Under the pieces are notes generated by a model. That model made no database searches. It saw only the letters and a program-made list of their open reading frames with translations, and was not told the DNA's origin. From Agroathelia rolfsii (taxonomy: Eukaryota > Basidiomycota > Agaricomycetes > Amylocorticiales > Amylocorticiaceae): a stretch of 64,000 nucleotides of DNA. Positions 17,121-57,567 of this stretch are shown here, piece by piece. Numbering within the stretch: position 1 is the stretch's first letter; every line of letters begins with the position of its first letter. The translations under genes and the position numbers were made by a program. The stretch covers positions 1,922,001 through 1,986,000 of the forward strand of contig JABRWF010000008.1 of assembly GCA_018343915.1 (NCBI GenBank). The letters are read 5' to 3'.

Positions 17121-18655
<1,535 letters not shown>

Positions 18656-30590: not shown

Positions 30591-31945
30591 TCAAGCCCGG
30601 ATGGAGACAATACCCGGCTTGATCTCTTCTGCGGCGCCCTCTCCCTCACGTGGGAGCAGCTCGACCGTCCTGGTCTTCTTGATCTCCGCATGCTTCGGTC
30701 CGAGGTACCGGGTCGTCTCGAAGCTCCACTATATGTCCATTTTAGATCATCAGTTTGGAGTATCATAACAGCATGAGAATGCCTCAATTGCGGCAGAGAA
30801 GGATACTTACCGCAATGCTGCCCGAGACCCAATATCCCAAACTATTCACATACAGCTCTGCCTCGGGGCCCCACTTGGCCACCTTGCCACGTTCAGTCAT
30901 GTATGTCTTGAAGAGTTCATTGAAGTGCTTCCCGGCTTCATTCATTGCATCCTGGAGGTTCAGGCCCTTTTCCTTCATGAGCACGGCGATGACGTTATTA
31001 CCCTCCTGCCCTTTAGATTGTTCGAGGTTGTATGAGTATACGTCCTATGAGTAAGAAAGAAAAGAAAAGGAGGTTAGCATAAGAGCATTTGTCAAACAAA
31101 GAGGAATATGAATGATGGGGGCATCTGCTACTCACATTAGACCAGCAGACCATATCCACCACAGCCCAATAGGCCTTCAAAAACGCTTCGTCCTTGAACA
31201 ATTCGTCAGGGAGCTCGAGCCCAAGGCCATACTCAGCCAAGCAACAACATGGGCGCAACGCGCTGTTCTCACGGCGCAGATCGATGTATGCAGGCAAAGG
31301 CAAGATCTTGCCTGCCTCGCGCAGCTCAGCCTCGCGGATCACGCATTCAATGTAGTTCGTGCAGTGCTCCAGGAAGCGGCGCCAGGTACGTGGCTTCATA
31401 GTGCGCAAAAGGCGGGCTCGGAACCTTGATTTTATATTGGCGGTTGGTGGTCAGCTTCTCGTAAGCATGGGACAAGATTATGTGTGCTTACTCTTGAGTC
31501 ATATGAGCGAGCTTGGAGCCATCATCCCAAGTTGGGTCACGCATGACATTGAGGAACGTATCTCCGGTAATGCGTGCGTGCTTGCCGCTCTGCGTATCAC
31601 TGACTTCATCCACGACAAAGAGGAGGTTGACGAAATCACAAGTGGCACGGAACTCTTCGTAAGGGGCGAATGGGAAAGTGCGGGAGACAAGAAGCTCGTT
31701 GGACCCTATTCAATCCATATATTAACTTTGAAAGTAAAAAGCAATGAAATATGCATACATTGAACGAAATCAGCTCGTTTTCTGTCAGTAAAGACATCGA
31801 AGCTGTTAGTCCACTCTCTCGACTCGGCAGCTGCGAGTTTGTAGTGGGGGTTTCCCAGGACTTTCAAGGTACACGGAGTAACCATATCGGGGATTATGTA
31901 TGTACCACGTTTCGCTGTAGCAGGCTCTTGCACGGAGATATTCAT
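30591..31945 (-). CDS. Sesquiterpene synthase, class I (copy A, intact)
   Basis: Exons 31945-31759, 31705-31492, 31424-31136, 31044-30811 and 30728-30591 join in phase to 353 residues. The first metal motif is D95-E96-x2-D99 in [11 protein letters not shown]. The second (NSE) is N230-D-V-Y-S234-x3-E238 in [16 protein letters not shown]. The C-terminal Arg-Tyr pair is present ([10 protein letters not shown]). The enzyme should ionise farnesyl diphosphate and cyclise it; the product cannot be told from sequence. No signal peptide is seen, so it is cytosolic. Exon lengths 2 to 5 (214, 289, 234 and 138 nt) are identical to copy B, showing recent common origin. Confidence 0.93.
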
Positions 31946-35194: not shown

Positions 35195-36080
35195 TTCAGG
35201 GTCTGAGCATACATTAATGCTATGCAAGTTCTATGTCAAATAGGGATAGACATTTATCTAGTATCGCTGACAGGCTGTAGTTATAGAATGCTCCGCAGCG
35301 CTTACTATTACAGCAGATAGAGAAATGATAGACGCATCGACAAAAGTTTTGATATCAAGACGCGGTTTCTTGTTTGGGAAACAGGAATTCCTTTTGGAAA
35401 CTGAGTGACAATATTCTGGATGGGGCTTGTGCTCGTCTTGCGTCGCCTGTCTCTTGTCGCTTCCCCTCTGACTTTCTCTTTGTTTTCTCTGTCTTACTGT
35501 GGTCCAGCTGAACGTAAAAATATACTAAGCTTGTAGTAAACAGGACCACCGTTGAGCAAGAATTGGCCTTGTTCTGGAGGGCATCTTGATGCTGCTGATT
35601 TACTGGAGCAAATAGAAAACGTAGGGATACGAGGATCTGGTCAAGCCATGATGGGGGAACACTGAGAAGCAATCAGAAGTTTAATTTAGGGGCTTGTAGT
35701 ACTGTTTTTTTAGTCTACTCACTCCATCAATAAGGATTAGAAACGTGTAGAAGTATATCAAAACATATCGAAACATAGCAAAGCTTAAAAAGTAGTAAGC
35801 ACTTAGTAGTATTAGTACATTAGCTTGTAATATGCTGTAAATGACTTTCAAAAGGGTGATGCAAGCCAAGCACAAGCCCCGCCCATTCACACCCAGAATG
35901 ATGTCACTCGGTTTCCAGAAAGAGTGCCTGTTTCCCAAACAAGAAATCATGTCCCAATATCAAAACTTTTGTCGATGCGTCTATCGTTTCTCTATCTGCT
36001 GTAATGTGCGCTAGATTCTGACAAGCGCCATCAAAAGGAATATGAGGTCGGTAAGATATATATCCATATTCGCCAGTATT
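35195..36080. repeat. Large foldback (inverted-repeat) element
   Basis: The left arm (best part 35306-35455) is repeated in reverse complement at 35840-35999. Shared tracts include gatagacgcatcgacaaaag, tttcttgtttgggaaacagg and ggggcttgtgct. Weaker similarity extends outward to about 35195 and 36080. The loop is about 380 nt and AT-rich. Arms are roughly 85-90 percent identical in the core. No transposase is encoded. It may be a foldback-type non-autonomous transposon or an inverted duplication; target-site duplications were not found. Confidence 0.8.
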
Positions 36081-36277
36081 CTTGTAGGGAATATGCTTAA
36101 AGCATTGAAATGGTTCTGAAAGTTTTATAAAATGAAAGTTGATGTTGAATGACGTCCCTTGGAGTTGTCCAAGTAACTTCAATCGTAGTACTTAGTAAGT
36201 TTTTTAGTATTTCAAGCTAGAGGCAATTGGGATATTACGCTGTCACGTGTGAAACAAGCAAAAGCCTAGCAGCCAGA

Positions 36278-36420
36278 GTTCCCCCGCCGGAAAAATCTTG
36301 GAAAAAAAAAAACTCTCATTTGAACGCCTTCCGAAAAACCTCGCAACTACACGTCGAGCCGCAACCCTGCCGCGGCCATGGCTCATACTTGAACTGCAGT
36401 GTGTAATTTCTGCCATTCGA
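36278..36420 (+). repeat. Dispersed repeat, copy 1
   Basis: Shares gagttccnccg, ttccgaaaaacctcgcaac and aactgcagtgtgt, in the same order and orientation, with 52652-52785, 16 kb away. Non-coding; origin unknown. Confidence 0.65.
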
Positions 36421-36523
36421 CTTTATTTTATCTATCAATTGCGTACGATTCACGAGACTGAGACCATATAGTGAAGCGCAAATGAAAATTTTACAATGAT
36501 GAACAAGTAGTGAAGAATGCTCA

Positions 36524-36785
36524 CTCTCTGGTCATCGCCGCAATCTTGGAGCCGTCGTCCCAAGTGGGATCATTCAAGACCTTGGGGGACGCTTCCCCGG
36601 TGGATCGCACCTCTTTCCTATTTTGTGTATCGGCACGTTCAAATCTATTCACCCAACTGCGCATTTTGGCTGCAACGACTTGATAGCTTGGGTTGCCATG
36701 AATATCAAGAGTAAAAACAGATGACATATCAGGAATTGTGTAGGTGTGCGGCTGAGAGCTGTTCTTGAACTTGGAAATGAGGAGC
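36524..36785 (-). pseudogene. Internally deleted sesquiterpene synthase fragment
   Basis: The minus strand reads SQPHTYTIPDMSSVFTLDIH, then GNPSYQVVAAKMRSWVNRFE (exon 1 of the family), and jumps directly to [20 protein letters not shown] and IAAMTRE, the end of exon 2. The intron and the segment with the Asp-rich motif are missing, and exons 3-5 are absent. It is a fourth member of the local terpene synthase group. Confidence 0.88.
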
Positions 36786-37686
36786 CCTATGTTGATTCTG
36801 CTAGGACATTACGATCTTTACTCAAGAGAGGCTCCGGGTTATAGATATGGGTGCGCATGTGTGTCTTATCATTCCTACAACAACCACCGACCGGTCTGAG
36901 CCAAAGTGATCCGATATTCCGACCTTGAGTTGCGTTAAATGATCCTAATCATCATAATGAACAAAGGGAGTCGCCATGCATCAAGGGCGGAGAACATGAT
37001 GACGTGCACATGCATCAAATGGTGACTCCGGTGGTCTAGATGAAGTTGAAATCCATCATGATCCTTCTTTTTCTTTGTTAGTTCTGTCATTTCTGAAGGC
37101 CACTCAGGCGCTCAGAGCGCCTGAAGTCAGTCATGGTTGATATATATACGTTGATACATTAGCAGGTTGCCTTTTTGCTATTTTGGGCTGGGTAGTAGAT
37201 ACCGATATTCGGGCTGGTATGTCATAAATGTTTAGCTCCCTGCCAACTTGGATGCGCAATCGTAAGTATCGTTTATGTCGGGCTCAAGCTCCTGTATTAT
37301 GATGTCCACTCCTAGTGTATGCTTTGAAATCTGCAATATTAAGTCACTGGCTTTTAAGTTCCTGATTCGGCTAATGTAATACTGTAAACGCATGCTGAGG
37401 GACGGTAAATAGCCTGAGCAGTCAGCATAAATGAACTAGTTCCGCTTGTACATTACTAACTGTATTTGAAGTCAAGGGTTGAAAAAATTGTTGAAACGCT
37501 GAAGCAATATTGAAATAGTTCCGATCAGTGTTCGGAAGCAAAGCACTAATCAGAAGACACGTGATGTGACGAGACGTGGCGCGCAAGTCAAGTGTCTCAT
37601 AGAAACAAATCTTTTCTCAAGGCAACCCACTCCACACTCTACTTATCTCACGGCTCACGACCATACGGCTCTTCTAATATATCAAA
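36786..37686. other. Intergenic before TRAP-alpha-like gene
   Basis: No gene is supported. The right end holds the promoter of the next gene. Confidence 0.45.
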
Positions 37687-38863
37687 TATGCGGTTCCAAT
37701 ATCTCTTCGCAGCTTTGGCTGCTGCTTTAGGCGTTTCTGCCGGTGGGTGCAATGAGAGGTCTCAGTATGTCAGTCAGACCAGAACTAAACAACACAACCT
37801 GGAATGCAACAGTATCGGTCTTTACCTCGGACGAGCCTGACATTTCGGTCACTGCTTCATTCCCGGAGAGCAATCCATTCGGTCGTATGTTTCTCTAGTC
37901 GCGTTCATCATAAAACGTCCAACCTGACTCTACTCCTTAATAGACGTGGTTAACGGCGAGAAGAACTCGCTCAGCCTGGTAATCGAAAATAACTCGGACA
38001 GGAACATCACACTGCTCTCAGCTGCAGGTTCATTCCATGATGTGAACACTGGCAAGACACTGAGGAATGTACGTGCCACCTACAACTGTATTCTCTTGAC
38101 GTAACGTTGACCCTCTTGCATGACCAGACCTCTACACTAAGTTATAACATTCCTCTCATTCAAAACTCCAAGATTGCTCTGCCATACAGCTTCTACAGCG
38201 AGTGAGTCCTCGGAGAGTCGTAATTAATCTTTTACTAATTTCATTACAGGTTCAAGGTATATATGCTAAGTGTATAGTATTGACATACTGTATCTAATGA
38301 TCTGTTTTTAGCCTGGAGAACTCCGTCTGAACATTTGGGTTGACCACACTGTTGATGTCCGTATTTCATGTAGTTTCTTGATTTCGTTACATTCTAATTT
38401 GGTCTTGCATACAGGATGAAAAATACCGTGTTGTGGCCTACGATTCTCTTGTCACCGTCGTTGAGCCCGAAATATCCATTTTTGACCTGAAGCTGTACGC
38501 GAACTGTTTCTTGCTATTTGCATAACACTAACTTAACTCCGAATGAATAGTCTTTCCACCTACTTGATGCTTTTCGGCCTCCTTGGTGGCTTGAGCTACT
38601 TCGCATACTTGACTTACTTCCCCCAGGCCAGCAAGCCAGCTCGCACCAAACCCAGTACATCGGAGATCTCTGCTCCCGTCGGCACGGTCACCGCTACGGG
38701 CGCGGGTGGCTTTGAGGAGAGCTGGATTCCCGAGCACCACTTCAAGAAGCCCAAGGCTATCAACAGGAAGAAGAGCGGTGCAGTCAACAGCGGCGATGAG
38801 CTCAGCAATACCGATGCCAGTGGCACGGAAAGCTCCAAGAAAAAGAAGGGCGGTCGCAAGTAA
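37687..38863 (+). CDS. TRAP-alpha / Irc22-like ER membrane protein
   Basis: Associated with the ER translocon in the TRAP family. The product starts with a signal peptide (MRFQYLFAALAAALGVSAG). A lumenal beta-type domain follows, built from several small exons: DEPDISVTASFPESNPFG, VVNGEKNSLSLVIENNSDRN, LSYNIPLIQNSKIALPYSFY, PGELRLNIWVDHTVD and YRVVAYDSLVTVVEPEISIF. One TM helix (LSTYLMLFGLLGGLSYFAYL) and a short cytosolic tail rich in Lys (SSKKKKGGRK) complete it. This order is that of TRAP-alpha and yeast Irc22. The junction after the signal peptide needs a 31-nt intron, shorter than usual, so that border is uncertain. Confidence 0.82.
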
Positions 38864-39267
38864 TCTGAGCGATTACTGGGAATTTAGGACGCCTTTGTAG
38901 GTCTGGAGGATAGTGATTTACTGGACAACATCAGAGTGAAGATTTATTTGTTTTGGGTCTGCTTTGAAGCTTGTGTTTCACATATGTTCCAGTTTTGAGT
39001 ACCTCATTGTCGAGATCTAATTTAAATGTTTGAATAATGAATGCATTTGGCGGGATACAGTTCAAAAGACAGGTTATGCAGTGTGGAGTACTGATCAATA
39101 TTTTCCGGCGAAGCTAGAGATGTTTTTGATGATCCAACATCGCATCGGCTTTTACAGGATGGCAAGTGCTGGTGCGTCTTTGAATATACTCAGGCCCAAG
39201 CTCCTAGTCTATGAGGTCAATTCAAGCGTAAAATAAGGGTACATATGACCACGGATATATTGAAGCT
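38864..39267. other. Intergenic between convergent genes
   Basis: 3' flanks of the TRAP-alpha-like and complex I genes. No other feature is seen. Confidence 0.45.
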
Positions 39268-39652
39268 CTAGATGTCAATGTGCTTGTACCCCTTCACCTG
39301 AGGGTAGTTGAGTTCATTAGCATCTCCGTGCTCATACATTTACACGTTAAGCCGCCCACTCACCCTGCTATCCCTCATCATGGCAATGTATTTCTCAGAG
39401 AGCCATCTGCAATTTTCGTAGTGGTTAACACCCTCAGTTCTGTGGCATTTCGCAAGTTCATCCGCAACAAGTCGCGCCTCCATAGAGCGGACCCAGTCCT
39501 CGCGCAATTTCTGTTCCCGTTCGCGGAGGCGGGCTTTATTTCATAAGTGCGGGAAAGAGTTTATTATTTTTAGGTTAGTTCCAGGTAAGCCACTAGAGTT
39601 TCGAGATGCGCCTGCCTTTGAGCTGGGAGACTGCAGATTCGTCAATGGCCAT
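39268..39652 (-). CDS. Complex I PDSW/NDUFB10-like subunit
   Basis: Accessory subunit of mitochondrial NADH:ubiquinone oxidoreductase. Minus-strand exons 39533-39364 and 39297-39268 join in phase, giving ARLREREQKLREDWVRSMEA, then KCHRTEGVNHYENCRWLSEK, YIAMMRDSR and VKGYKHIDI at the end. The Cys pair spaced CX12C and the final Gly-Tyr-Lys segment are as in fungal PDSW proteins. The proposed first exon begins at 39652 (MAIDESAVSQLKGRR), but no ordinary GT donor there gives the right phase; a GC donor after SQLK would. The start is therefore tentative. Confidence 0.62.
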
Positions 39653-42117
39653 AGCTGGAGAGAATATGTTTGGGTAATGGAGAGACGGACGAGACGATGC
39701 GGGTTCGGAGCAGCTGCCGTGTCGGGAAACGGGAGATTCTATATTTGGTAATCCTACGGTCTGTTCGCGGCGTGCGTCTCGGGTTGACTTGAACTGTTCC
39801 GAGTCTGTTCAATACTCGCCAGGAAGTCGTTACGGCAAAGCCTGACTACGCCTGGTATAATTCAAAGGCAAAGCTCTTTCAGTCAGACTTCCCCTTTAAT
39901 CCCAACATTATTCCGGCAATACACGTTCGCTAAATTCCTCGATCACAATCTGAGGTCTGAGGCACGGCGCCGCGATGACAGTCTATTAGGCTCTCACATA
40001 CTACTACTGCTGGCTGTCGAGTTTCAATAGCAGCATACGACGGTCTCGGGCAAATGGTAAACGAAGTGTCTAGTGCTTATGCTCATCTTATAGCCAACGA
40101 ATCGTAGCTCGTGCATTGTTGGTTACCTTTCTCATATACCCATCTCCCTAAGGAACTTGAAATCGCGATAATTCCATTTTAATAGCGTGATGCTGTGACA
40201 CTTGCATTCGCCAGTCCTATGGCTTCTCCAGACAGATACGCTAAAGCAATGCACTGGACATCGTCTTAGGATCAGTTCATGACTAACGCGTTGCAAAATA
40301 AAGCGACTGGATGGGGTATTCCTCACCCTGTTCTTATCTATGGACTAGTGCTCGATATCTGCCATCCCTCGTATTCATCTGCACCCATATCTGGGAGTAT
40401 GGCTACACCGTGCTGACGTGAAAAACAAGGTGTTCCGGTACACTAATTTCAATCAATCTTGGTTTCTTAGTATGTAGGCGATTATAGTACAAGACTTTCG
40501 AACTATTGGCTGAATCCTGGTCAAAAACCCGAACCGAAGGCGACAAATATAGCGAAATAATTGGCTGACGAATGTTGGCTGTGTTGGAAACAACCTTGGT
40601 TTGCTCACAACTCTCCAGCTTGGCATACAATTCAGGCCCCCAGCGACTTTAAGAACATGATACCAAATTTGATCTGACGCCATCATCATCATCATCATCA
40701 TCATCGCATAGCATGGCTAATAACAAGTCGAGAATTCCTGAGGATGCACAGCTGAGGCCTGCGGAAGGGGTTGCGTTAGTCACTGCGATTAACAACATTA
40801 CAATAGGAGATAAAGAATTTCGTATGTCTTTTCTCGGACCACTTTTCTTTCAAACACTGATACTATTTCTTCAGCTGCATCAAACTCGCTCAGGCTTGTT
40901 GATGCCCGGATCAATATAGAATCCGTAGATGAGGCATTGCCCGCGTCGGAGGGACTTAGAATAGTGTCTTCTTCGGCAAATACTAGTCACGACAACTTGA
41001 AGTGTGAAAGTATTTACATGTTCTCTTATGCATTGATGCTATTGGCTTAATAATTTCGTTCAATTATGTCCACCACCCTTGTTCACGGTTAGATACGGAC
41101 AACCGACAGGATTAAGTGACCGAATACCCCTCCCTAAGAGTAAACTCAGTCGCAAGAGGTGACGACACAGTAGAGTTGGCCCAAGAGCTGAACAACCTAA
41201 ACACCAAAATCGTTGTTTACGCCGTTTACATCCACTAACCAGCAAGAGATTGAGATTCTGGATCCCGAGATCTGAGTCTGTCGTCTCCATCCCGCTCCTC
41301 AGTGGGTATGAACTCGCGGATATCTTTTCTCAGGCCTGGAATATTGCTGGAACACTTGCGAATCACTCCCACTTAGTAGGATGTCAGCTTCGTCCTATCG
41401 CGAGTGTGTATCTAATAGCACCAGTATTGTCTCTCATACAATCGAGCGCGTCTGGTGACACCTATTTTACATCCAGGTTCTTGTTCCTATTCTCTTTGCC
41501 GATAATCATATCCTTGTTTTTCTCTTCTCTTGATACTACCATTACGGCACCTCTGTAGGACTGTAGCCAGAAATGTTTTTGATCCAATGAAATGAGAAAT
41601 AAACAACCGAAGTAACTTTCCTGATCAAGCTTTGGCTCGAGAACTCGACAGATCTGAGCCTGCTTACCGTACGTTGGTCCTCGTGATATTATTGGTGTCA
41701 TGTCCAACTAAAAGTCAACTTGAATACCAGTGCTTCGTTGTCAGCTTGTTACCGACATGGCACTCACAACTTAATTATCATTCATACCTAGATGATTAGA
41801 TCCGAACATCATTCTCTTCAAAGTTGAGACTTCATATAGCATGAAATGTACCCCAGCATTTTGTGTTTTGTCTTCCCATGCGCCGACCCGAAGACACCGG
41901 CCCGGAGCAAGAGTAAAATCGGAACCAAGCTTGTCATGAGTCAGTCTCATCCGTCCCATTAGCACTGTCACTGTAACAGCTACTACTCCCGGCGAGCAAT
42001 CAACTTCAAGTTAAGATCAATCTGATTGATGCTAAGCGGCCACAAACAAACGGCTTAAAACCAGGTTACCAGCATTGCATGAGGGACATTTCTATCTCAC
42101 ATCGTGAACAAATTGCG
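39653..42117. other. Long region without a firm gene
   Basis: Short possible exons occur: 40713-40818 (MANNKSRIPEDAQLRPAEGV...) with a donor at its end, and 41109-41238 in one frame (VARGDDTVELAQELNNL). I could not join them to a gene or recognise a family; they may be a relic or a small lineage-specific gene. A (CAT)8 microsatellite lies at 40681-40704. Confidence 0.35.
40681..40704 (+). repeat. (CAT)8 microsatellite
   Basis: Eight perfect trinucleotide units directly upstream of a short ORF starting at 40713. Confidence 0.95.
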
Positions 42118-44413
42118 ATGAATCCCCAATGTGCCAAGTGCAAGAGATCTCATAGCACAAGGGACGAAACGTTGCTCACGTGTTGTTACTGCTCAATGTC
42201 TTGGCATAATGGTGAGTACTAGCCCTTAGTAAAACTATTCTATCGAGTCAAACCATCTTATATGGAATTATGTATATATATCATGTTGATGCGTTTTGCT
42301 ACTAGTCTGCCATGTGCCTCGCGTCAGCAACTTAGAGCTCTTGGACTTGATCTACCTGAATCGTCACGAAGAGAAGATCGACTTCACTCGCTGCGGTTGG
42401 AGCTGCAGCAACTGCAAGGCTTTAATTAAGACATCGAGTCCCGAGGTTTGTTGCATTTATAGTTAAAAGTTATAAATATTTTATCACCTCCGTTTTCTTA
42501 GCAATCAACCTCATCTCTGAAAGGCCCTGCTAATACAAGGGAAAACAGTCACCTTTTAAGCTCCTCGGGAAGTGATCGCTCGCAATGGCCTAAACAGACG
42601 GCTCGAAAGGGTGCAACTCGTGATCAATGGCGCATTGACTGGGATGAATCTAGCGATTATGATGATATTGAGACCATGGATCCTTTATTGGGGCGGACAA
42701 AGCAGACCGCTCGGAAGAGCACAACTTCCGATCTGTGGTATACTGATGACGAGCTTAGCGACGGTGATGAGATTGACACTCTGGATTTTGCCTCCAACCT
42801 CATAAAGAAGACGGCTATCACTCCACGGTCCACTAATGAGCCCCATGGCATCTCCGGCAGAGGGGGAATTGAATCCTCCTCAAAGTTGAAGCAGCCCAGC
42901 CCGTCTACTAGCTCTCGGTAAGTACCCCAATGTCCTGCCTAATTCATCGTCGCAGTCGACACTGAAACAAATTATCAATCCAAAAGACCAAAACAGACGG
43001 CTCGAAAAGGTTCAACCTCTGATCCATGGTATACCGAGGACGACGCCGAATTTAGTGGTATGGCTGAAATTGAAGCGATTGCCTTCTCCTCACGTTACGA
43101 CTATCCTCGCTCTCCAGCTGCCTCAAATTTTGATGTTTGTTAGATTTTCGAAACAATGTCACATAGCAGCTTATGATCTTCCTCGCAGTCATATGATGCG
43201 TTGTTTGCTTTGACGAAAGCATTCGAACTGCAATCAATCTCTCCTAATCCGTCACGGTCAGATCACGCGCCAGGGCGCAAAAGACAAACTGCTCGAAAAG
43301 CTTCTACTTCTGTTCGAAGTATGTGGGATGATATATCTCTGATTTCCGTTAGAACACCCGAAATAACTGCTTCATAATTCAGGTTCTCATTCTTGGAGTC
43401 CTACGTCGGTTTCGACTCAAAATAACTCACTACCAATGGTGAGTAAAATCCTCAAATTAGTCGACTATGGGCTGGATTTGAGTTTAAACGCCCATATATT
43501 ATATCATGTACAGGACGCTTCCGTAAGAGATCAACGGACCATTCAAAAAGGCCCTGTACAAAACCGAAATCATGGTGTGTCCGGCGATAGAGCTGGAACC
43601 CAAGCTTTGGACCGTCCTGGCTCCCTCCCTCTCCACCATGGTCCTCCAGTGCAGATGGATTCGCCGGTTTGTTGTATATAATATATTAATATGCGATGAA
43701 ATCTCTTATGTTTCCCCTCACTGTAGCATTCAAGTCCCTCTTGGAACAATTCCTCAAGAGATTTCGGACATTTTTTTTCTGATATGTCAGGACATGCTCG
43801 GGCTCCTTCCGGAAAGAAACAGACAGCTCGGAAGGGTACGAATTACGATTCAGGACCTGCAAAAAATCGTAATACAGTTGCTCAGGTTCATACGATCAGC
43901 TCTCCTCATATGATGCCTGTACAAGCGATTGGAAATGCTGGCGCTCGTGATCCTTGGAGTTCAGATTACTACAACACAACTATCGAGGCGCAGACCATCA
44001 ATTCTCCTTCCACGCGATCCATTCAGACTGCTCGGAAAACTACAACCTCCAATCCTTGGCTTAAGAATACTTCCATCGCAAGCCAACCTAGGACATCAGC
44101 TCCCTTCACAGCTGCCAGAACGGGCTGGGCCAGCGCGCAGAAGCCATCTATGACCGAAGCTAAAACACGCGAAATCCGGAACATAGTTAATCCTGCTCAT
44201 ATCACAAACGATAATCATGATGGCTCCATTGCGTGGTGGGTCAATGCGAGAGAAATGGCCACGTCGAGCACGAATAACTCCGGCTCGCATGCATCAGGCC
44301 CGCGGAAGAAGGGCGGAAGAAAGAAAGGACAGGCCAGACACATCGGCGGTCAAGAGATGGGGAACTCTGGGTTCACTTTTGTCTCGCGGAACTGGGCCTC
44401 CGAAAGAACTTGA
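42118..44413 (+). CDS. PHD-finger protein with six histone H3 tail-like repeats
   Basis: Eight exons (42118-42211, 42306-42445, 42502-42917, 42987-43134, 43189-43318, 43383-43438, 43514-43666, 43727-44413) join in phase to 607 residues. The N-terminus is a canonical PHD zinc finger: C5-C8-C22-C25-H30-C33-C65-C68, with W29 before the His and W63 two before C65. A long, probably disordered middle part carries QTARK six times, at about residues 110, 146, 220, 299, 411 and 479; each is preceded by K, R or I and followed by G, S, G, A, G and T. Copy 2 (42694-42723) reads RTKQTARKST, identical to H3 residues 2-11. The C-terminus has DGSIAWWVNAREM, a basic PRKKGGRKKGQAR nuclear-type signal and GFTFVSRNWASERT, shared with the neighbour at 45027. 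PHD fingers read H3 tails; the role of the mimic is inference. Confidence 0.85.
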
Positions 44414-45026
44414 GCATGAGGCTTCAAGATTTAGCTCAATGCCATAAAGGTCACCGATTGTTCGATGGATGATTTTGTACTACTAGTATACGCATAAAGG
44501 TGTAGCTACTACTCAAAGTGGCATATCACATAGGTATCTCGGTAGCGGCTACTCTAATGGGCACATGGTAGCCGGATGTCATATAGTACGCAACTACTGG
44601 CATCCCTTCGATAGATTGAAGGGAGTTTCCAGCCAGAATTTAACTTTTCTCTCCATGAATAGGGTGACAGAAAAGGAGCTGCGACGCATAGATTGAAAAA
44701 ATTAACAGTGATACCAGGCACAAAGAAAAAGTGAAGTGGCGACAAAATTAGGAGCAAGTGAAGAGAGACGACGCCAGGGAACATAGTGTCCCGCCAACCG
44801 ACGCCAACCGAGGACGCATCGACGTACCGAAGACCATGATGCATGATGCGTGACTGTGTGACCTGTGTGTGACTCTCGGGTGTTATGTGTAGCCACGGCC
44901 AATTTGAATTTTGAACATTTAAATTCTTTTGGAGACTCATTGGCATCAATAGAAACATTATCAATATCTAGCGCTGTTATAGATAATAGCATTCGCCTCT
45001 TTGATCTCGTGCTATCCACAAACGCA
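44414..45026. other. Intergenic between PHD paralogues
   Basis: Presumably the terminator of the first and promoter of the second paralogue. No further feature is seen. Confidence 0.45.
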
Positions 45027-46488
45027 ATGTCCCTTCCATGCATCGCGTGCAAGCAAGCACACAGCACACCAAGGGCATTCTTGCTCACATGTTGCGACTG
45101 CTCGATCACTTGGCATCATGGTCAGTCTCATTGCATGTTGTTGCACAAAGCCATGTTCGCCTACAGCATTCCCTAAATCTGCTCTGTTCAATCTATCCCA
45201 GTCTGTCATACACCACCTGTTAGCAATCAAGAGTTGATTAATATGATTAAAGCTGCCAGTTGCGTTCCCCGTCTACTGCCAACACCGTCGTTCCTGCACT
45301 GTATCATGATAGTAACTGTCCCTTTTTTGAAGCTAAAGGTGAGGTTGATGGGAGTCTAAGTGACTGGAGCTGTAGTAGCTGCAAAGGTTCACATTGAATA
45401 CCACTACAATTGATTAAATTCGCCGAGCTCAACGGACTGGACTAGGGGTTAGTGCTCCCAAGCTAGAATGGCAAACGAATTTAGCGGTAAGTTGACTTGA
45501 GACCCACCGATTAGAGACATTGTGTATTTATTGTCTTTTTGATAGTCAAATCTTACGTCACGGGCTTCTGCGATGCAGGCCAGCCATTTGAGTTATACAC
45601 CCGCCAAACAGTCCAGTCTGACTGCTCGGAAAACCGCAACTTCGGAGCCACAGCATATCTATGAACTCAGTGATGACGATGAAATTGAGGTTATAGATAC
45701 TCTGCCTCCTTCCGCTGTTGCTGCCCAGAACCAACCAAATGAATCGGTTAGTTGTTAGTTAAATCTCCTAAATCAATGAAAAATTAAAACCTCTTTTTCA
45801 GTCAAACCCCGCTCTCAGCACGTATAGCAGAAAGACTATACACCTACCCTCCAGCTCCTTGAGCCATCATTCAACTGGGAGGTCAATTGAGACCTCTCGA
45901 AAGGATGTGTCTCCTGCCTCACTGTTCGCCAATAAATCTGGCGATAGCCCTGAGATTGAGATCATCAAATCTTTTCCTCCCGTATCTGTCAGCTCAACCC
46001 AGGCCGAAGCTGAAGTTCGACGGGAGCATTCCAGTACCGTGGAATTGGAGGTGGAGGATATGTATGGAGAAGAATGGATTGGCCGCAATCAAACGCCTCC
46101 TGACAACGCACCAGTCCAGCCTATCCCAACTCCATCCAGGGGGGCAAGCCACCGTAGTACACCAATACTCAGAGCGGAGGGCGATGAGATTAGACCACAT
46201 ACTGGTCAACGCGCAACACATCCCGAAAACATCATATCTCACGGAACCTGCACAGGTCCCGAAAATGATGGCTCCATAGTCTGGTGGGTGTACACGAGGG
46301 AGAGAGCTATGTATGAGTCGAGCTCAACTGGTTCCACCGCACATGTACGTATAAATAAGACGGGAGGAAGAACGAAAGTACAGGCTAGGCGCCTTCAAGC
46401 CGCTCATCAATATCCAGAGAAAGTTGGGTTCACTTTTGTTCTGAAGGACTGGGTTGTTGCTCGGACTCGAGAATTGTCTGAGGATTGA
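45027..46488 (+). CDS. Second PHD-type paralogue, possibly disrupted
   Basis: Exon 1 (45027-45120) is 94 nt, as in the paralogue, and encodes CIACKQAHSTPRAFLLTCCD with CSITWHH; exon 2 from 45203 gives VCHTPPVSNQELI. The last zinc ligands WSCSSCK (45369-45389) are in frame only if an intron of about 75 nt is removed. Beyond it a TGA (around 45396) sits where the paralogue is open, and the join to exon 3 (45546-45746) does not fit in phase. Exons 45546-45746 and 45802-46488 are clean. They encode one H3-like motif (LTARKTATSEP), an acidic YELSDDDEIEVIDTLPPSA segment, and the shared tail DGSIVWWVYTRERAM ... GFTFVLKDWVVARTRE. Either the 5' part uses unusual splicing or the gene is decaying. Confidence 0.6.
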
Positions 46489-46722
46489 TATAATTAAACC
46501 TGAGCCATGACCAAATCCATTTGCCTTTCATGTTGTGTCATCTAAGCAGAATTTACAAGGATTGCGAGAAGCAGCTGGATTACTGGGCTAAAGCTGGCCG
46601 AAAGTAGCTTGCATAGGCGACTTAGAGTGAGCACTGAGAAAGCCGTAAGACATCAAATGGATCAAATCTCAACAAAATTTAACATCCATGAACATCTCTA
46701 CTAATGACTAAAACATTACAAT

Positions 46723-49700
46723 TCACTGTATTTGAACTATCAATACACTCAAGGACCATGAAAGGCTTTCGTAAGTGAACTTAGAGCCCGTCTTGATCTT
46801 TGAGTATACCGGAATCGCAGCAGTGGGAGTAGCTGGCGTGTTTGCAGTCGTTGCATTGCCAGTGAGGACAACGGAAGTTCCAGTCTCTGAGACGGAATCA
46901 AATGGCAGATCAAAGTTAAGTGCTACACTGTTGTTCCCCACATTGGCAATCTAGAAGCAAGATATGCATGGTTCGGTACTGAATCGTCTTATACCTTCAC
47001 TGGAGTGAAATGTCGTACCTTGATGTAAATCTCATGGGAGCTCGTGTTACTAGTAACACTCCAGAACAACGTCCCATTGGAAGAGGGAAGTGTACTAGGC
47101 AAATACTCGTCTCCAGGATAGATTCCAAAAAGTCTTTGGACGCTAAATAGCATTACCTTAGTCACAACAATACTTGAGTATGAAAGCTACCGCGCACTAA
47201 TAAGAGGTCGAGGGATAAATGCTACCAGCATCAAAACTAATCAATTTTGGCTTCACAATTTGAGCATTGAGATTCTGGGCATATATTATAAGGCATTAAT
47301 GCCATCGCTTATGATAAGACTGATGAACTGACCGTAAGCAAGGGGGCATATGCAGCAGCAAAGATGATGTCAGCATTCCGCTCAAAACCTGTTTTGTAAG
47401 AGCTATACGTATAATGTGCGTGGATAGGACAATCAAAGTACTCACCCGTCATGTAAGCTGCCTCGGAGACACTGCTCTCAATATTTGCGTAGGGAAGTTC
47501 ACCAGCTGCCGCAGTGGAGCTGATGCTCTTGAGTACATTTTTATGATAGAACTATAAAAATTTAATAGCATACACGCAAGCATATTCACCCTGAAAATAG
47601 GTAGTTCCGTTTCTCTAGTGCATAATTTTGCGTGAGAGTTGACGATTTTACAAAGGGACATCGTAATACCTCATAGCTGTCGAACAAAAAGACGTTCGAG
47701 GAGAACCAAGACGCAGATTCGTACACGTGAAGATCCCACTAAACCATTGTTAAATTCATAAAGTGAGACCTAAGGATAGTTTATATCCAAACCTTGAGAG
47801 GAGTTGGGGTCAGCTTTGGACCGGAGGGATAGGACGTAGCAATAAGTTCTGATATCCAAATTGGGTAAGGTTAATTATCTGTGCATGATGATAGGCATAC
47901 GAAGGTCCGGGAAGGCAGCACTGATATTGCCTGCGAAATCTTGCCACCTGTAGGGATAAGTTCCTTGTGCAAAGAAATCTTTTTACAAAACAGTAAGTTG
48001 TACAATTTGAAGGGCATATCAAGCTTTACAATGAACCTTCGTTCCCAATTTCTACGTATTTCAAAGTAAATGGCTCTTGACGACCTAAGGAAGCTCTCAG
48101 CGCAGCTATTGACAGGCATATAAGTTTTTTTTTTCAATTATTCTGAGGGAAGCAAATCAAAAACTTACCCGGCGCACTCTGGGAAGGGTCCCCGACAACA
48201 AAGTTGATTTGATCAATAGCCTGTTGAATGTAAGGCGCAAGCTCGTCCTCCGGTAAGCTTACGCCATCCAATACGTATCCATCCCAAACTAGAGAAAATT
48301 GAATTATAAGAGAATTTGATTAAATGTCCATCTTACCTCCCATGATTGGTTCCATACCGGAGTCCTCACACCAGTATAGGTACTCGAGAAGCCCAAGGCC
48401 ATCAGTATTGATATATCCCCACTATCAAACGTTATAGATGCAAATAAATATCTCATATGGCTTTACTCACCGTGCCGAGACGTCCTAAAAATGGGTGAAT
48501 TAGACTAACTACAGTGCATTTTAGTAGCGCACAAGCATACCTGGTCGATCGACAAGGGGACCAACTGTCGCATTCCATTGCCAACGAGTGCCAGTGCTCT
48601 CACCCTGTTACCATGTATCTTAGCCACTTTCATAAAAGCAGATTCTGGGAATTTCGAACCTCCTATTTATATATATATATAGACTGGGTTAGAGGACTAC
48701 AGAAATCGTCATCAGGAAAGACGCACCAAATTGTTTCCGCCTGGGAATCTCCAGAACTTCGGTTGGGTAGCAATCAAGATCTCTGCAAGATCAATCCGCA
48801 TCCCATTTTCTCGATTTTTGAATGTAGGTGGGAAAAGCGAAAACATCGCAAAGTGGATTTTTTCGCCTGCTGCATCTGGGATTGAGACAGTGAAGCTGTT
48901 GTTTGTTGAACTAGGCGAGCCAGTTGCTTCCAAAGCTAGGTTAACTTGAATCCAGTCCGTTTGACTACCGCTTAATTCGGTAGTGGTAGATCAATATATG
49001 CTTCCAGACTCTCCTGTAAGTGCAATCACCGCTTTCCCGGCGTATTTTGAAGCGCTGGGGAAGCGGTAATAAAAGGATACGTTGTATGTCCACGATGAGT
49101 TAACCTTTATGCCTTTTAAATGTGTTAAGAGCTATCGGGCTAATGATGAAAGAGAAACATTACCCCAATAGCCGCTGTTTGCTATTTAGCAAAAAAGGTT
49201 AGATAAGTGGCCTAACAGGAAGGAGCGACGAAAAACGGACCAAAACCGCTGTATCCGGTGGCACCTGATGGTATGTTTACCTCTAGAGCGTTCGGTAAAG
49301 CTGAAGATACAGCGTCCGCGACAACTGTAATATTTGATCCATTCACGGAAGACCAGGCCGTCAAGGCATCACTGGTGCCGGGTGTCACTTGCTGAAAAGC
49401 GCGATTCTGTAAAACTGGCTCCTTATGTATCAATAATCCGAGATAGCTAGGAAAGCAAAACTAATCTCACGCTCTGCATAAAGCCCACCATCCCCACTCT
49501 GATAAAACAAGTTTAAGACAAAAAAAAAAAAGTTTTACAGCTGAAAGTACTGTACATACTATGCAGTAATCATCAGCGAGACGTTGTAGATAGATTACAA
49601 ACTGGTACTAACTCTGATGTCCTGTTTCACATTTGAGTATGGTTATGATATTTATTCAAGTTATAAATATGATCAGAATATTGGATTTGGCGGAAGGATT

Positions 49701-49857
49701 ACTGTAAGAGATTTACTTCAAACATGTCACCCCATAGCGTAGTTGGGATTGCGTGACTCGCAGTTGAAGATACAGAAACAGTGACCTGCGCGAGGCATGG
49801 ATCGAATATCCAGAAGATCAGGAGCGTACAAAGTGTGCTCAACCAGACGAAATGCAT
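46723..49857 (-). CDS. Secreted GH51 alpha-L-arabinofuranosidase
   Basis: Removes arabinose side chains from plant cell-wall polysaccharides. The start at 49857 gives a signal peptide ([20 protein letters not shown], cut near CLAQ), then [16 protein letters not shown]. Minus-strand exons continue with [76 protein letters not shown] and [20 protein letters not shown]. The acid/base Glu is in LKYVEIGNE, spliced to [20 protein letters not shown]. The nucleophile Glu is in a 39-nt exon (47614-47576) reading [33 protein letters not shown] and a C-terminal beta domain follow. There are at least twelve introns. All key residues are present; I did not fix every border. Confidence 0.88.
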
Positions 49858-51043
49858 GTTATCAAGAGAACGAGTGATGTTACACGAGAGATATAAACAG
49901 GCTAAGGTCGTCGATTCGAAACTGAAGTATTCTAGTACAAAGATAGGCCTATTTATATACATAGGAAAATAGAATAAAAGATAATAAAAAAGTACTTCCA
50001 AGTCCTAATTTTGCACGACTGGAAGGCGGGTGCAGATGGGTGAAATCGTAAATGAGCAATAAAGAAAATCAACGGGTATCGTCACGGGCATAGCACCGTG
50101 CGAGTGTTACAGATCGGCCGATCAGTTACATAAGGCCTTTACAACCATCATTTGCGCATGGTGAGAACTAATGCCTTTTGTATGACAAAAGATGGTTAAA
50201 TATAACGCCATCTTGATACATGCCAGCATCGCATTACAGTTTTTGCATACACCGAATATCTTAGGGTAGCCATGTGGAGGTAATCAGATGACAAGCAGGC
50301 ATCAAAAGCCACGAATTGGTTTAGCTAATTTGGGTGCGGTTGACAAAAAGCAATGAGTCCAGTGGATACTTTCGCGAAGCCGAATATGATATCGTAAGCC
50401 CGTGACTAGACCTCTTCGGCGGAGGGTACATGAATGTACACAAAGAAGTCGAGATGTGACTGTTTCGGATGTATATCGCGAGGATAGCGAGTATCATACT
50501 TGACCGAAAGCAAACTTGCGTATGGCTAGATTAGCCTAGATGTAAGAGGAAAGTGAATACACCGACGAGTCACAACATGTTTGTCTTGCATGCTACGTAC
50601 GGAATACCGTTGATGTTATTAGGGACTTCGGCATGTACTATAAACAGAGCATTGATAGGGCTCCTAACAGATTGGACTGAGGCGGATTGAGACGGATTGA
50701 CTTAATTGAGTGGAGTACAAGTTCAATTGAGTCAATCCGTCTCAATCCGCCTCAATCCGATCCGTTAGGAGCCCTATAGAGCAATCGCCTGAAAAAAAAG
50801 TGCTTGAGCTTGCTAGGCCCAGGGCGGGTGATCCCCATTCCTTAAGTTAATAGTTAGTGGCATTTTCTGTTCACTGATATCAGCCAGTCTACAAACCTAC
50901 TAACATATAATATCACGTTGTAATGATGAGCTATTGAGTATTTGAGAATGAGACATGTCTACGTCATGATAACACAGGCATCATCTCGACACTGTAGCAC
51001 TCTTAGACGCGTAACACTTGCTTGAATCCGTACCATTTGCAAG
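49858..51043. other. Intergenic between divergent genes
   Basis: Holds promoters of the arabinofuranosidase and PAC1-like genes and the palindrome at 50655-50777. Confidence 0.5.
50655..50777. repeat. 123-bp near-perfect palindrome
   Basis: The left arm starts atagggctcctaacag and the right arm ends ctgttaggagccctat-like. The arms are about 55 nt each and differ at only a few positions around a loop of about 10 nt. Inside each arm the 7-mer ggattga is repeated. The flanks agagca before and after (50646 and 50778) could be a target-site duplication. It fits a very small MITE, or a hairpin able to give small RNAs. Confidence 0.85.
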
Positions 51044-52122
51044 ATGGTAGACTGAGCTATTTGATTTGCGTTGCTCGTTTCCCGCTCAATTATCTTTTAG
51101 GATATTATCGATCCGTTAGCCGATTCTGCCCCGCCCCGATACGCCCTAGAGTCTGATGATGAAGAGGACGAATACAATCCGTTGCCTCACGCAGGAAGTG
51201 ACAACGCTTTACCCACCGAAATCAATGTCATGATTCAAGGAAATATCGAAAAGCAGAAGCCCCTTCTAGTTGGATCTGGGGATACTGCAAAGTACTGGGC
51301 TCGGGGATCTCAACTTGGAGAACAGACAGCTGGGGTCTATGTTAATAAGGTTCAGGTAGGTAAAAGTTTTGCTTATATCTGTCACCATATTATCTTGAAT
51401 CAAATTGAAATTTGTCAAGGTCGGACTTGTTTTCAGCCCTACCTGGGCACACGCAACAGTAATCATATCCGAAGTTACAACACGATTGCCTTTATGGGCG
51501 ATGTATAAATATGCGGAGTACGTGGGGCAAGAGTTTCAGCCTACCAGGTATGTAATATTAACACACCCGGATGATCAGAATCAGTGTGATGACAAAGCCA
51601 TAGAATCTCCCTTCTTGACTCTTACGCGGTGCCCGCATATATAACAGATGAGCCACAACCATATCATGAAGCTCCGGTGCGATATCTATCAACACAAGAG
51701 ATCCCTGCTGTAGGTTCCTCTCTGTCGTCTTTGACGCTCAGGGAATTAACTTCTACCTGGAAACTTGGATGAAACAGGATATCATAAAAGCATTTGCACC
51801 ACCCAATCTGGTATCATCCACTGCCGCTGCTTTTGTCTCCTATGCTGCACTTTCTTCCACCCCTGCACTTCTTGTACTTTTGCCTTCGCCTCACATTTCC
51901 TCTCCGGCTCCTCGCACACTTGCCCCGTCTTCTTTCACTCATCTTTCCGAAGATCCTGTACATTGGTCCAAGGATATCATCAACCCCGCACAAACCGCTC
52001 TTTTCGACTTTTTGAAAGTTGATTCCGTACCAGAATGGCAGGCAGATAAAATCAAGACGCAGACCAGTGGGGATCGTAAGATCGGTAGAAGTGAGATTGG
52101 CGAGGGAGGCATGTACATTTGA
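51044..52122 (+). CDS. PAC1-like proteasome assembly chaperone
   Basis: Assists assembly of the 20S alpha ring, together with a PAC2 partner. Exons 51044-51046 (the ATG alone), 51101-51355, 51420-51547, 51604-51709 and 51778-52122 join in phase to 278 residues. The N-terminus is DIIDPLADSAPPRYALESDD, with an acidic stretch; the core contains KYWARGSQLGEQTAGVYVNK, VGLVFSPTWAHATVIISEVT and RLPLWAMYKYAEYV; then come DSYAVPAYITDEPQPYHEAP and FAPPNLVSSTAAAFVSYAAL, and the end reads EIGEGGMYI. I assign PAC1 from the overall pattern of basidiomycete homologues as I remember it, so the family call is moderate. The start codon forming its own exon rests on a good donor (gtagac) and a 54-nt intron. Confidence 0.65.
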
Positions 52123-54879: not shown

Positions 54880-57567
54880 ATGGCGACCTTCGACTACCCT
54901 TCCCAAGTCCTCCCCCTGCCTCCGCCTTCTGCCTATATCCCTCGCACCTCCTCCCGCCATCACACATCTGCCAATCTCATGGTCCTCTCTTCCACCCAGA
55001 CAGTCGATCATCCACCTTTCCTCAATCATGTGGACTCCAAGACCATCCCGGTGTGGCAGAGCCGTGACGCTGATCCTACGCCACGGCTGACGACCATCGA
55101 CATGAACGCTCCCCGCCAGCTGGTACCGTCGCTGGCAGGTGTGGCCATCATGCAGCCGCCCAAGGCGGTGCTTGCCCCGGCTGCTGGAATCGATGGATCA
55201 TTCCCAATCAAGAGGGAACGGGTGAGGCATAGTACAGCACTTGGTAACGAGAACAGGATGTCGGAATATCAAGAGCGCCACAAGAACACGACACCAAAGA
55301 TGAATATGAAGACCGTTCCAACAGCTGGTGCGTTGCTTGAAACTTCCAACCTTACCTATCATCTGACTTGGAGTTTTTTTTATCTAGCGTCATCATTGCC
55401 GCTGGGCATTGTTTTGACTGATCATAAGCCAGGACTTGCTCAGAATGCACAACCAAAGTCAAATGAAGGTCATGCGCTCACTACCGTGGCTGATGATGCT
55501 GCAATAAGAGGTGAAGATCGTTGCAAGGATCAACTTGGCTTTTCCCGTTCTTTCAAAATCTGATACCATTTCCTCAGTTGCATCGCATTCGCTTGGTGAT
55601 GCTCCTATCGATGCCGAGCCCATCGACGAAGCATCATCTACGCCGAAGGTCATTGGAGTAGCGCTTTCCTTGGAAACTGCTGGCGATGACGGTTGCAAGA
55701 ACATCTGTATGTTTTCTCCCATCAATATTATTCGTATTGAAATCCATTCAGCCACTTCCACAGCACTTGTCGATGCACCCATCGAACAGAATGCAGCCCT
55801 TGATACTACAAGAGAAACCATCACATCTATTAATGCCGGCGTTGGGTGCATCGAAGATAAAGTCAGCCAATTGAGTACGCAGACAGGTGCAGCCGCTGAT
55901 GTGATAAACACTCAGGAAACCGACGAGTTTGTGCCACCTTCTACGGCCCTCTCTCACTCAGTAATCGATCTTAAGGAAGCGATCAAGCTGGTCGCAAGCA
56001 AGTCGTGGGAAATGAAACTCGTGGACGATTACATGAAGTAAGCTCATCTACCAATGTCGAATACCTCACGATCTAACGAATCATGATAGGGATGAAGACA
56101 TTCCCGAACCTGATAAGCACACAGTAGAGGAACTGGGTGTCGCATCTCTACTCACTTCTAAGGGCGCTGGTGATTTTCCCGTCGTAACTGACATCGCTCT
56201 CAGCGTGCCACTCGACGCTGCAGCCATGGACTCTCAGACCACCCCGGCGCCTCTCAAGCCTCATGAAACCCAGACCCACAACACCCGCGATGTCAAGACA
56301 TGGCAGCCATCGTACTGCAGGGCTGGCCCTCGCCCTGGTCCTGGTCCATCACACGCTCCTCCTCCCCGTCGTCGACATGATCACAGGCGAATTATGCAAG
56401 AAATGATGGAAGCAATGGAGAAAGCTGGCCTGGAGGAGCAGCGACGAGCCGAAGAAGCAGCACGACAAGCGGCTGCTGCTGCGGCAGCACGTAAGCCCAC
56501 GTTGAGGAAGTGGGTTCGATCGGTTCTCGAGTTTATCAAGGGTCTTTTACAGCCGGCCAGGCATGAACCTTCAAAATCTGAGATCATTTCCAACGCTGGG
56601 GAGGAGTCAAAGTCGTCACTGAAGGAGCCTGAGTCGGAGAAGCCAGCTCCGAAGCCAGCTACCCTGTGTGTATCCTTCTATCTTCTCTCAAAGCTCGGGA
56701 TCTCTCTAACACTTCTGTAGTGTTGTACCAATGATCAAACTCACTGTATGTAAATATCGCTCCAAGCCACTCCTCAAGTGCAACCAGCGCCTACTTCATC
56801 CCACCTGGCTCACCCAACCGGAACGGCAGCGCCTTACCATACTGATACGCGACGGCGTCAGTCGGTGTCAGGCGACTCGTGATGTGCTGCTGGTTCGCAA
56901 TCTCGGAGCTCACGCCCCCAAGCCACTCAACGATCTCGGACATATCTCTGAGCCCGAGACAGACGGGGACGCGGTGCTGGAAAACCTTGTCGGCGACACT
57001 CATATATCTTTGCCCATCGACAGCAACCCTTCGCCTCTGCCTCCATTAGAAAGCAGCAAATCTTCATCTCCGGAGGCCCACAGCAGTTCATCGACTCTTG
57101 ACCATCATGCCCCTCAAATTAAGCGCGACGGACGTCTGCTTCACCCCACCTGGTTGACGCGGGCAGAACGGTGCAGTGTGGCTGAGAGCACCGAACAAGG
57201 ACTTACTCGGCGCCATGCGACGCGAGAACTGCTGAAGGCACGGGGTCAGAGGGCCGCCAGAGCGGAGTCACTTGACGGGATGAAAGATATCGGCAACATC
57301 GATACGGATACGGACGCATCATCAAAGGACATGGGCGACATCTCTTCCAGCTGCTCTGAACCTGATAGCGGTGCCTTTTCGTCGGATGAGGCTCCTCAAT
57401 CTGATGCTGTTGCGATCGAACCGTCTCCTACCCCTGACGCAGTCGCAACTCCCATGGAGCACTCTGATACAACCGAGCTGAAGACGATGTGGATGAGGAT
57501 GCCGAACAAGGTGCACACGCTGTTCTCGCTTTGCTCTGCGGGATGGCGTCGCGCTGGTGGTGCGTGA
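54880..57567 (+). CDS. Unknown 788-residue protein with duplicated HPTWLT motif
   Basis: Exons 54880-55327, 55388-55510, 55578-55706, 55752-56037, 56090-56665, 56721-56745 and 56788-57567 join in phase, so the gene looks intact. The first 400 residues are Pro/Ser/Thr/Ala-rich and probably disordered. About residues 430-480 form a charged helix with an Ala run (RRAEEAARQAAAAAAARKPT) and an amphipathic segment (LRKWVRSVLEFIKGLLQPAR). Residues about 530-570 and 645-685 are two copies of one motif: RLLHPTWLT, three residues, ER, then G(V/L)(S/T)RxxATR(D/E)xLxxR. The C-terminal part is acidic. There is no signal peptide or TM helix, and I do not recognise the family. Basic and helical segments next to acidic ones would suit a DNA- or protein-binding role, but that is speculation. 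Confidence 0.72.

What the first reader, a model, noticed from the sequence alone, without database searches (positions are those of the whole stretch)
42118..44413. PHD-finger protein carrying six copies of the histone H3 tail core
The predicted 607-residue protein has a complete PHD finger (C4HC3) and, behind it, six copies of QTARK, the core of the H3 tail around Lys9. One copy, at 42694-42723, reads RTKQTARKST, identical over ten residues to H3 positions 2-11, so chance is unlikely. Copies lie in four different exons and are followed by related S/T-S-D-P-W text. H3-tail mimicry is known from G9a self-methylation sites and influenza NS1; a histone reader with an array of H3-like tails is not something I know. 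Possible roles: a substrate for an H3K9 methyltransferase, a scaffold for chromodomain proteins, or self-ligand of its own PHD finger. The last is weaker, since most PHD fingers need the free H3 N-terminus.
Basis: partly seen in the sequence, partly recalled or inferred. Interest (0 to 1): 0.88.

Follow-up and report, generated by a model that had tools for sequence, protein, structure and literature searches.

The report
Fungal protein with six histone-tail copies
A fungal gene encodes a zinc-finger-type protein that carries six selectively preserved copies of the key stretch of the histone H3 tail, so it may act as a stand-in histone tail for chromatin enzymes or readers, although no experiment has yet shown this.

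Summary
The eight-exon model gives 607 aa with six exact QTARK copies in four exons; one, at 42694-42723, is RTKQTARKST, identical to H3 2-11. Shuffles predict 0.09 such DNA sites per window.

New: the core is under selection. Over 15 copy pairs, codon positions 1+2 differ in 0 of 150 comparisons, third positions in 36 of 75, while flanks are saturated. Gene 1 has no near-miss copies.

No other relative was found in the genome or in three protein searches, two of them capped.

'Histone reader' is not established: the finger is below Pfam's cut-off and lacks the K4me tryptophan and BAZ2B's Arg2-binding acids, but keeps its acidic wall; the paralogue does not.

Best reading: a multivalent H3-K9 mimic for H3-tail writers or readers. 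An H3K9 methyltransferase and HP1 were not detected, inconclusively. Function is inference.

The parts
42118..44413 (+). Gene 1: eight-exon gene, 607 aa; exons 42118-42211, 42306-42445, 42502-42917, 42987-43134, 43189-43318, 43383-43438, 43514-43666, 43727-44413
   Evidence: splice signals and open joined frame; no RNA data
42130..42415 (+). Divergent PHD-type zinc finger (residues 5-68; ligands C5 C8 C22 C25 H30 C33 C65 C68; spans intron 42212-42305)
   Evidence: sequence; sub-cut-off Pfam hits; PDB phmmer MTF2 E 0.009, BAZ2B 0.12, BAZ2A 0.29
42595..42609 (+). QTARK copy 1 (WPKQTARKGAT)
42694..42723 (+). QTARK copy 2: RTKQTARKST, identical to H3 2-11
42994..43008 (+). QTARK copy 3 (RPKQTARKGST)
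43285..43299 (+). QTARK copy 4 (RKRQTARKAST)
43820..43834 (+). QTARK copy 5 (GKKQTARKGTN)
44024..44038 (+). QTARK copy 6 (RSIQTARKTTT)
44150..44413 (+). C-terminal region shared with gene 2 (DGSI-WWV...GFTFV); no Pfam match, no confident fold
45027..46488 (+). Gene 2: tandem paralogue, tentative six-exon model of 368 aa; keeps zinc finger and C-terminal region
   Evidence: residues 1-40 dN 0.33 / dS 1.5, C-terminal region dN 0.62 / dS 1.7
45618..45632 (+). Decayed repeat in gene 2 (LTARK in SSLTARKTATSEP)

Best explanation
Gene 1 encodes a PHD-like protein whose long middle part (Ser-rich, presumably disordered; not measured) is a multivalent imitation of the histone H3 tail around Lys9. Shown: six copies keep Q5-T6-A7-R8-K9 without exception; the Arg2 and Lys4 positions are each kept in four copies; the S10 position is Ser/Thr in only two while the T11 position is Ser/Thr in five; selection holds the core and lets the flanks drift. 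Inferred: an enzyme or reader that normally grips H3 residues 5-9 (most likely an H3K9 methyltransferase writing K9-like marks, then chromodomain proteins reading them) binds several copies at once, so the protein works as a non-nucleosomal docking platform or competitor for H3-tail machinery, probably in the nucleus. Loss of Ser10 in four copies would remove the phospho-switch there.
For: Core invariance with synonymous divergence: pN 0.000 against pS 0.588 over 75 codon pairs. No 3/5 or 4/5 copies in gene 1, 1.5 three-of-five expected by shuffling. QTARK and its overlapping words are the only 5-mers seen more than once in gene 1 (top 8 listed). The chromodomain of Cbx3 buries six residues, whose H3 counterpart is QTAR(K9me3)S (PMC3325965, passages). 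All six copies fit the EHMT mimic pattern [ASGNLKEC]RK[SVTRQNMLKEAGR] (PMC10611923, section 17). Precedents of K9-mimics methylated and read: G9a/GLP automethylation sites bound by HP1, blocked by phosphorylation of the next residue (PMC9768651, passages); ATF7IP read by MPP8 (PMC6172828, abstract). Four intact H3 genes of this genome encode the same ARTKQTARKSTGG tail.
Against: Only 2 of 6 copies have S/T after the lysine, against the ARKS/T motif; Q and T are not required by Cbx3 (KKARKS and HRARKT bind), so HP1 alone does not explain their invariance. Pre-SET 0 matches, chromo shadow 0, a Clr4 query matched SET1-like loci only; the six SET hits are two SET1-like and three SMYD/SET5-like genes, named from recalled motifs; NHSCxPN patterns gave the same loci plus one broken frame. 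These searches go exon by exon over few candidates, the tool states that searches do not show absence, and they also missed SET2, which I recall as near-universal in fungi. The EHMT pattern is loose (8230 human proteins match). Copies 1 and 5 lack Arg at the R2 position. One genome only. The paralogue does not keep the motif. Disorder and nuclear location were not measured.
Confidence: 0.42

Rival explanations
1. Self-ligand: the repeats bind the protein's own PHD-like finger (or that of a partner molecule) and tune its binding to real H3 tails, as the H3-like linker of BAZ2B does; several copies raise the local concentration.
For: PDB neighbours of the finger include BAZ2B and BAZ2A. By that alignment E17 and D16 sit at the acidic wall E1944/E1943 of BAZ2B, a patch described as interacting with K4 and Q5 and able to salt-bridge R8 (PMC5415848, passages and section 6); Lys4, Gln5 and Arg8 positions are kept in 4, 6 and 6 copies. 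Gene 2, with decayed repeats, has R16/A17 there. BAZ2B linker autoinhibition is published (PMC5663869: abstract, section 8, first part of section 13).
Against: The Asp pair D1950/D1953 that binds Arg2 is C23/S26 here, and D1950 is also the residue that the BAZ2B linker engages; internal copies have no free Ala1 N-terminus; the covariation is one pair of genes; the alignment is weak (E 0.12).
Confidence: 0.18
2. Phosphorylation sites or a basic localisation motif: the repeats are R-K-x-S/T sites of a PKA/Aurora-type kinase (consensus recalled) or a nuclear localisation array, and the likeness to H3 follows from a shared kinase or from chance.
For: R-K-x-[ST] holds in 5 of 6 copies, and K or R precedes 5 of 6.
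Against: Does not explain invariance of Q, T and A or the four R2-like residues; copy 1 has Ala at the phospho-site.
Confidence: 0.14
3. Decoy for chromodomains of retrotransposon integrases, reducing heterochromatin-targeted insertion.
For: 150 chromodomain hits were scored out of 291 candidates; the one locus scanned carries integrase plus chromodomain. 18 of 29 listed C8 hits lie in C8:1.588-1.832 Mb, 90 kb from the window and about 132 kb from gene 1. A fungal MAGGY chromodomain binds H3K9me2/3 (PMC3350952, passages).
Against: 10 of the 12 domains read (the 12 best hits) have His at the first cage position; it needs methylation of the repeats, which is unshown; location may be coincidence.
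Confidence: 0.06
4. A minisatellite-like recent expansion without function.
For: Repeats within one gene, with no other such array found in the genome.
Against: Flanks between copies are saturated while the 10 first and second codon positions of the core are identical in all six; spacing is irregular (36, 74, 79, 112, 68 residues).
Confidence: 0.04

Closest known systems
BAZ2B PHD and its histone-mimicking linker (PMC5663869)
   Same: PHD-type finger followed by a segment resembling the H3 tail; the finger is among the five solved sequences matched; acidic wall kept
   Different: The BAZ2B linker is only loosely H3-like (ASGQTLKIKK...), one lysine-rich stretch followed by a bromodomain; its Arg2-binding acids are not in this protein; common descent of the mimics is not shown
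G9a/GLP automethylation sites, ATF7IP K16, LIG1 K126, CDYL1 K135 (K9 mimics; PMC9768651, PMC6172828)
   Same: Non-histone lysines in H3K9-like sequence, methylated and in some cases read by chromodomain proteins
   Different: One or two sites per protein as far as I saw or recall, sharing mainly A-R-K (G9a HRARKT; the others recalled); here six copies of the exact five-residue core in one protein; methylation unknown
Influenza NS1 H3-mimic (named in the PMC5663869 discussion; details recalled)
   Same: H3-like short sequence in a non-histone protein
   Different: Viral, single copy
Gene 2 in this window
   Same: Zinc finger, acidic stretch, C-terminal region (39% identity over the aligned C-terminal region)
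   Different: One LTARK and one ETSRK instead of six QTARK; acidic wall of the finger lost

Membership tests
PHD finger | C4HC3 zinc ligands with W two residues before the seventh ligand (signature recalled) | tested here: met
   C5 C8 C22 C25 H30 C33 C65 C68, W63 (translation)
PHD finger | Score over the curated Pfam cut-off | tested here: not met
   Gene 1: PF00628 10.4 against 24 bits, PF23004 17 against 27. Gene 2: 51-residue N-terminus 19.9 against 24, whole model 14.6
PHD finger | Cross-brace fold | not tested
H3K4me-reading PHD | Conserved Trp of K4me readers (rule from PMC5415848; its place, third of C-x4-H, recalled) | tested here: not met
   S28 in gene 1, T28 in gene 2
Acidic-wall PHD binding H3 (BAZ2A/B type) | Asp/Glu at the E1944 column | tested here: met
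   E17 (and D16) by phmmer alignment; not met in gene 2 (A17)
Acidic-wall PHD binding H3 (BAZ2A/B type) | Asp pair binding Arg2 (D1950/D1953 of BAZ2B) | tested here: not met
   C23 and S26
H3K9 mimic (EHMT motif) | [ASGNLKEC]RK[SVTRQNMLKEAGR] | tested here: met
   6 of 6 copies: ARK followed by G,S,G,A,G,T; the pattern is loose
H3K9 mimic read by chromodomain | ARKS/T | tested here: inconclusive
   2 of 6 copies (rule from PMC3325965)
H3K9 mimic read by chromodomain | Lysine methylated and bound in the cell | not testable with these tools
   needs mass spectrometry and binding assays
H3K9 machinery in the same organism | SUV39/Clr4 enzyme and HP1 encoded | tested here: inconclusive
   Pre-SET 0 matches, chromo shadow 0, Clr4 query SET1-like loci only; searches are insensitive to split exons

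The most novel reading that the evidence does not exclude
A fungus has built a dedicated soluble array of H3 tails: a multivalent, non-nucleosomal H3-K9 surrogate that collects or competes for H3K9 writers and chromodomain readers (possibly including integrase chromodomains of its own retrotransposons), freed from the Ser10 phospho-switch in four of six copies. Arrays of exact histone-tail mimics in one cellular protein would be a new form of chromatin regulation.
Probability: 0.3. Interest if true: 0.88.

Novelty: new variant of a known kind. Interest (0 to 1): 0.72.

Why it matters
Known cellular histone mimics are, as far as I know and as far as the papers I opened show, mostly one or two sites that share chiefly A-R-K with H3. 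A protein that keeps six exact Q5-K9 cores under selection, beside a PHD-like finger, gives a natural multivalent H3-tail surrogate with built-in variation at positions 2-4 and 10-12. It makes two questions directly testable: which H3-tail binder demands all of QTARK rather than ARK, and whether cells regulate heterochromatin proteins by titrating them with off-nucleosome tails.

Tried and rejected
Recent duplication or minisatellite: rejected by flank saturation. Ascertainment bias of the selection test (copies chosen because exact): checked by listing all partial matches; gene 1 has none at 3/5 or 4/5. The neutral figure of 5e-10 assumes a star tree and is not used as a probability. Recent copy of an H3 gene: rejected, 8-10 of 30 bases differ between copy 2 and each of four H3 genes for the same ten residues. 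Homologues elsewhere: three protein searches gave none at E up to 1 or 10. Searches scored only the 7991 and 7973 candidates sharing most words, one search scored 2339; how many fungal proteins that database holds was not established. Other copies in the genome: all 9 matches lie in the two genes (6 candidates scored). Homologous chromosome copy of the region: among the 30 listed matches of 36000-52000 none falls in gene 1 or gene 2 (the flanks have scattered matches of 64-86% identity); for 15000-31000 other contigs show only pieces under 200 bases, C8 itself longer ones. Fold of the C-terminal region: mean pLDDT 47.8, so no fold search was made. Secreted effector: the N-terminus (MNPQCAKCKRSH) shows no hydrophobic signal by eye; no predictor run. 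Print searches for such an array, listings only: 20 of 47 papers listed; 40 of 247; 20 of 54; 18 of 18; 4 of 4; 15 of 125; 12 of 27; none listed shows one in title or abstract start. They cover open-licence papers only.

Full report
What is there. The window lies at C8:1922001-1986000 of a 37.67 Mb, 8-contig assembly. A fungal protein kinase domain (Pkinase_fungal) and short introns mark it as fungal; basidiomycete is my guess from recalled gene content. Six exact QTARK copies sit at residues 110, 146, 220, 299, 411 and 479. The window holds 6 matches to the codon pattern against 0.09 expected, 0 of 100 shuffles reaching 6.

Genome background. With one further codon constrained, 22 sites exist in the whole assembly and 12 for the reversed control. 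I read all 22: 6 gene 1, 4 intact H3 genes with ARTKQTARKSTGGKAPRK, 1 H3 gene that I read as split by an intron after K4, 1 in an open frame of at least 566 residues that runs to the edge of the fetched locus (ARVKQTARKA; no Pfam match), and 10 in frames with nearby stops, of which three read QTASK. So the motif is at about chance level outside H3 and gene 1.

Selection on the core. Six copies give 15 pairs. At codon positions 1 and 2 of the core 0 of 150 comparisons differ; at third positions 36 of 75 do. Upstream (-4 to -1) the values are 61 of 120 and 44 of 60; at -10 to -5 they are 132 of 180 and 63 of 90. Nei-Gojobori counts give pN 0.000 and pS 0.588 in the core, and pN 0.732 / pS 0.737 at -10 to -4. 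Because the copies were recognised by being exact, I looked for inexact ones: gene 1 has six 5/5 matches and none at 4/5 or 3/5. This is what strong constraint predicts and a drifting repeat does not. Around the core, Arg stands at the H3 R2 place in 4 of 6 and Lys at the K4 place in 4 of 6. The S10 place reads G,S,G,A,G,T and the T11 place A,T,S,S,T,T. Flank identities to H3 total 13 over six copies, P 0.0002 against random residues of the same composition, but five of the 13 come from copy 2, and the copies are not independent of one another.

Origin. Copy 2 and four H3 genes encode the same ten residues with 8-10 of 30 bases different, mostly at third positions. The mimic is therefore convergent or old, not a recent capture.

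The paralogue. About 0.6 kb downstream lies gene 2 (about 45027-46488). Its first exon has the same length (94 nt) and phase and encodes the same finger start; the C-terminal region is 40% identical (E 8.9e-9). A six-exon frame can be drawn (368 aa), but one 20-nt exon makes it tentative. It has one LTARK and one ETSRK. Between the genes dN/dS is about 0.2 for residues 1-40 and 0.36 for the C-terminus, with near-saturated dS, so both look constrained at the ends.

The finger. Ligand spacing fits C4HC3, but Pfam scores are below cut-off. In the PDB five sequences match at E up to 1: MTF2 PHD (E 0.009), BAZ2B (0.12), BAZ2A (0.29), 1wev (0.36) and KDM5A (0.71). Using the BAZ2B numbering given in PMC5663869 and PMC5415848, E17/D16 match the acidic wall E1944/E1943, while the Arg2-binding D1950/D1953 are C23/S26. 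The Trp of K4me readers is S28 (its place recalled). Gene 2 has R16/A17 at the wall. So gene 1's finger is not a standard K4me3 reader, and is at most a partial match to the unmodified-H3 readers.

Mechanism. The H3 counterpart of the peptide buried by the Cbx3 chromodomain is QTAR(K9me3)S (PMC3325965), and R-K is the constant part of the EHMT2 substrate motif (PMC10611923). An array of QTARK is therefore best read as a multivalent stand-in for that part of H3. Two facts temper this: only 2 of 6 copies have S/T after K, and known mimics show that Q and T are not required by Cbx3 (KKARKS and HRARKT bind), so a binder that demands Q5 and T6 as well would explain the invariance better. The acidic wall of BAZ2-type fingers is described as touching K4, Q5 and R8, hence the self-ligand model keeps a real share. 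Host machinery: the six SET hits (10 candidates scored) come from five genes, two SET1-like and three SMYD/SET5-like by recalled motifs; NHSCxPN patterns found four of these and one broken frame; Pre-SET, chromo shadow and a Clr4 query gave no H3K9 enzyme or HP1. These searches are insensitive to split exons, so absence is not shown.

Context. 150 chromodomain hits were scored out of 291 candidates. The one locus scanned (L048) shows integrase plus chromodomain. Of 29 listed hits on C8, 18 lie in 1.588-1.832 Mb, 90 kb from the window and about 132 kb from gene 1. Of the 12 best chromodomains, 2 have Tyr and 10 His at the first cage position, with W and Y kept (cage positions after PMC3350952). 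This allows, but does not support strongly, a decoy role.

Verdict. Observation confirmed and strengthened; interpretation partly supported; function inferred. No array of this sort was seen in the listings of seven literature searches. Papers opened: PMC5663869 (abstract, section 8, first part of section 13), PMC5415848 (passages, section 6), PMC10611923 (abstract, section 17), PMC6172828 (abstract), PMC9768651, PMC3325965 and PMC3350952 (passages).

Noticed in passing
   Followed up: yes
L024 around 1501 (C8:1036315): An open frame of at least 566 residues contains ARVKQTARKA, 8 of 10 residues as in H3 1-10; no Pfam match.
   Followed up: partly
42730-42790 and 45650-45700: Acidic stretches after repeats (DDELSDGDEIDTLD in gene 1, DDDEIEVIDTL in gene 2) resemble SUMO-interacting motifs (recalled pattern, not tested).
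   Followed up: no
C8:1587909-1832276 (outside window): Cluster of 18 chromodomain hits (of 29 listed on C8), centromere-like, 90 kb left of the window.
   Followed up: partly
whole assembly: Paired hits suggest C1/C2 and C4/C5 (reversed) are homologous or duplicated chromosomes; the two window stretches searched show no such partner.
   Followed up: partly
17669-18655: Homocitrate-synthase-like frame, pieces of which recur on C8 (83% at C8:1918662; over its end 81% at 2022062 and 78% at 1928435, the last inside the window).
   Followed up: no
10946-14664: NACHT frame followed by a WD40-repeat frame (13 stretches), a common type of fungal NLR-like gene.
   Followed up: no
40814-41050 and 55508-56041: Two frames share a TISS-AS-SL... 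text and look like copies of one unknown gene.
   Followed up: no
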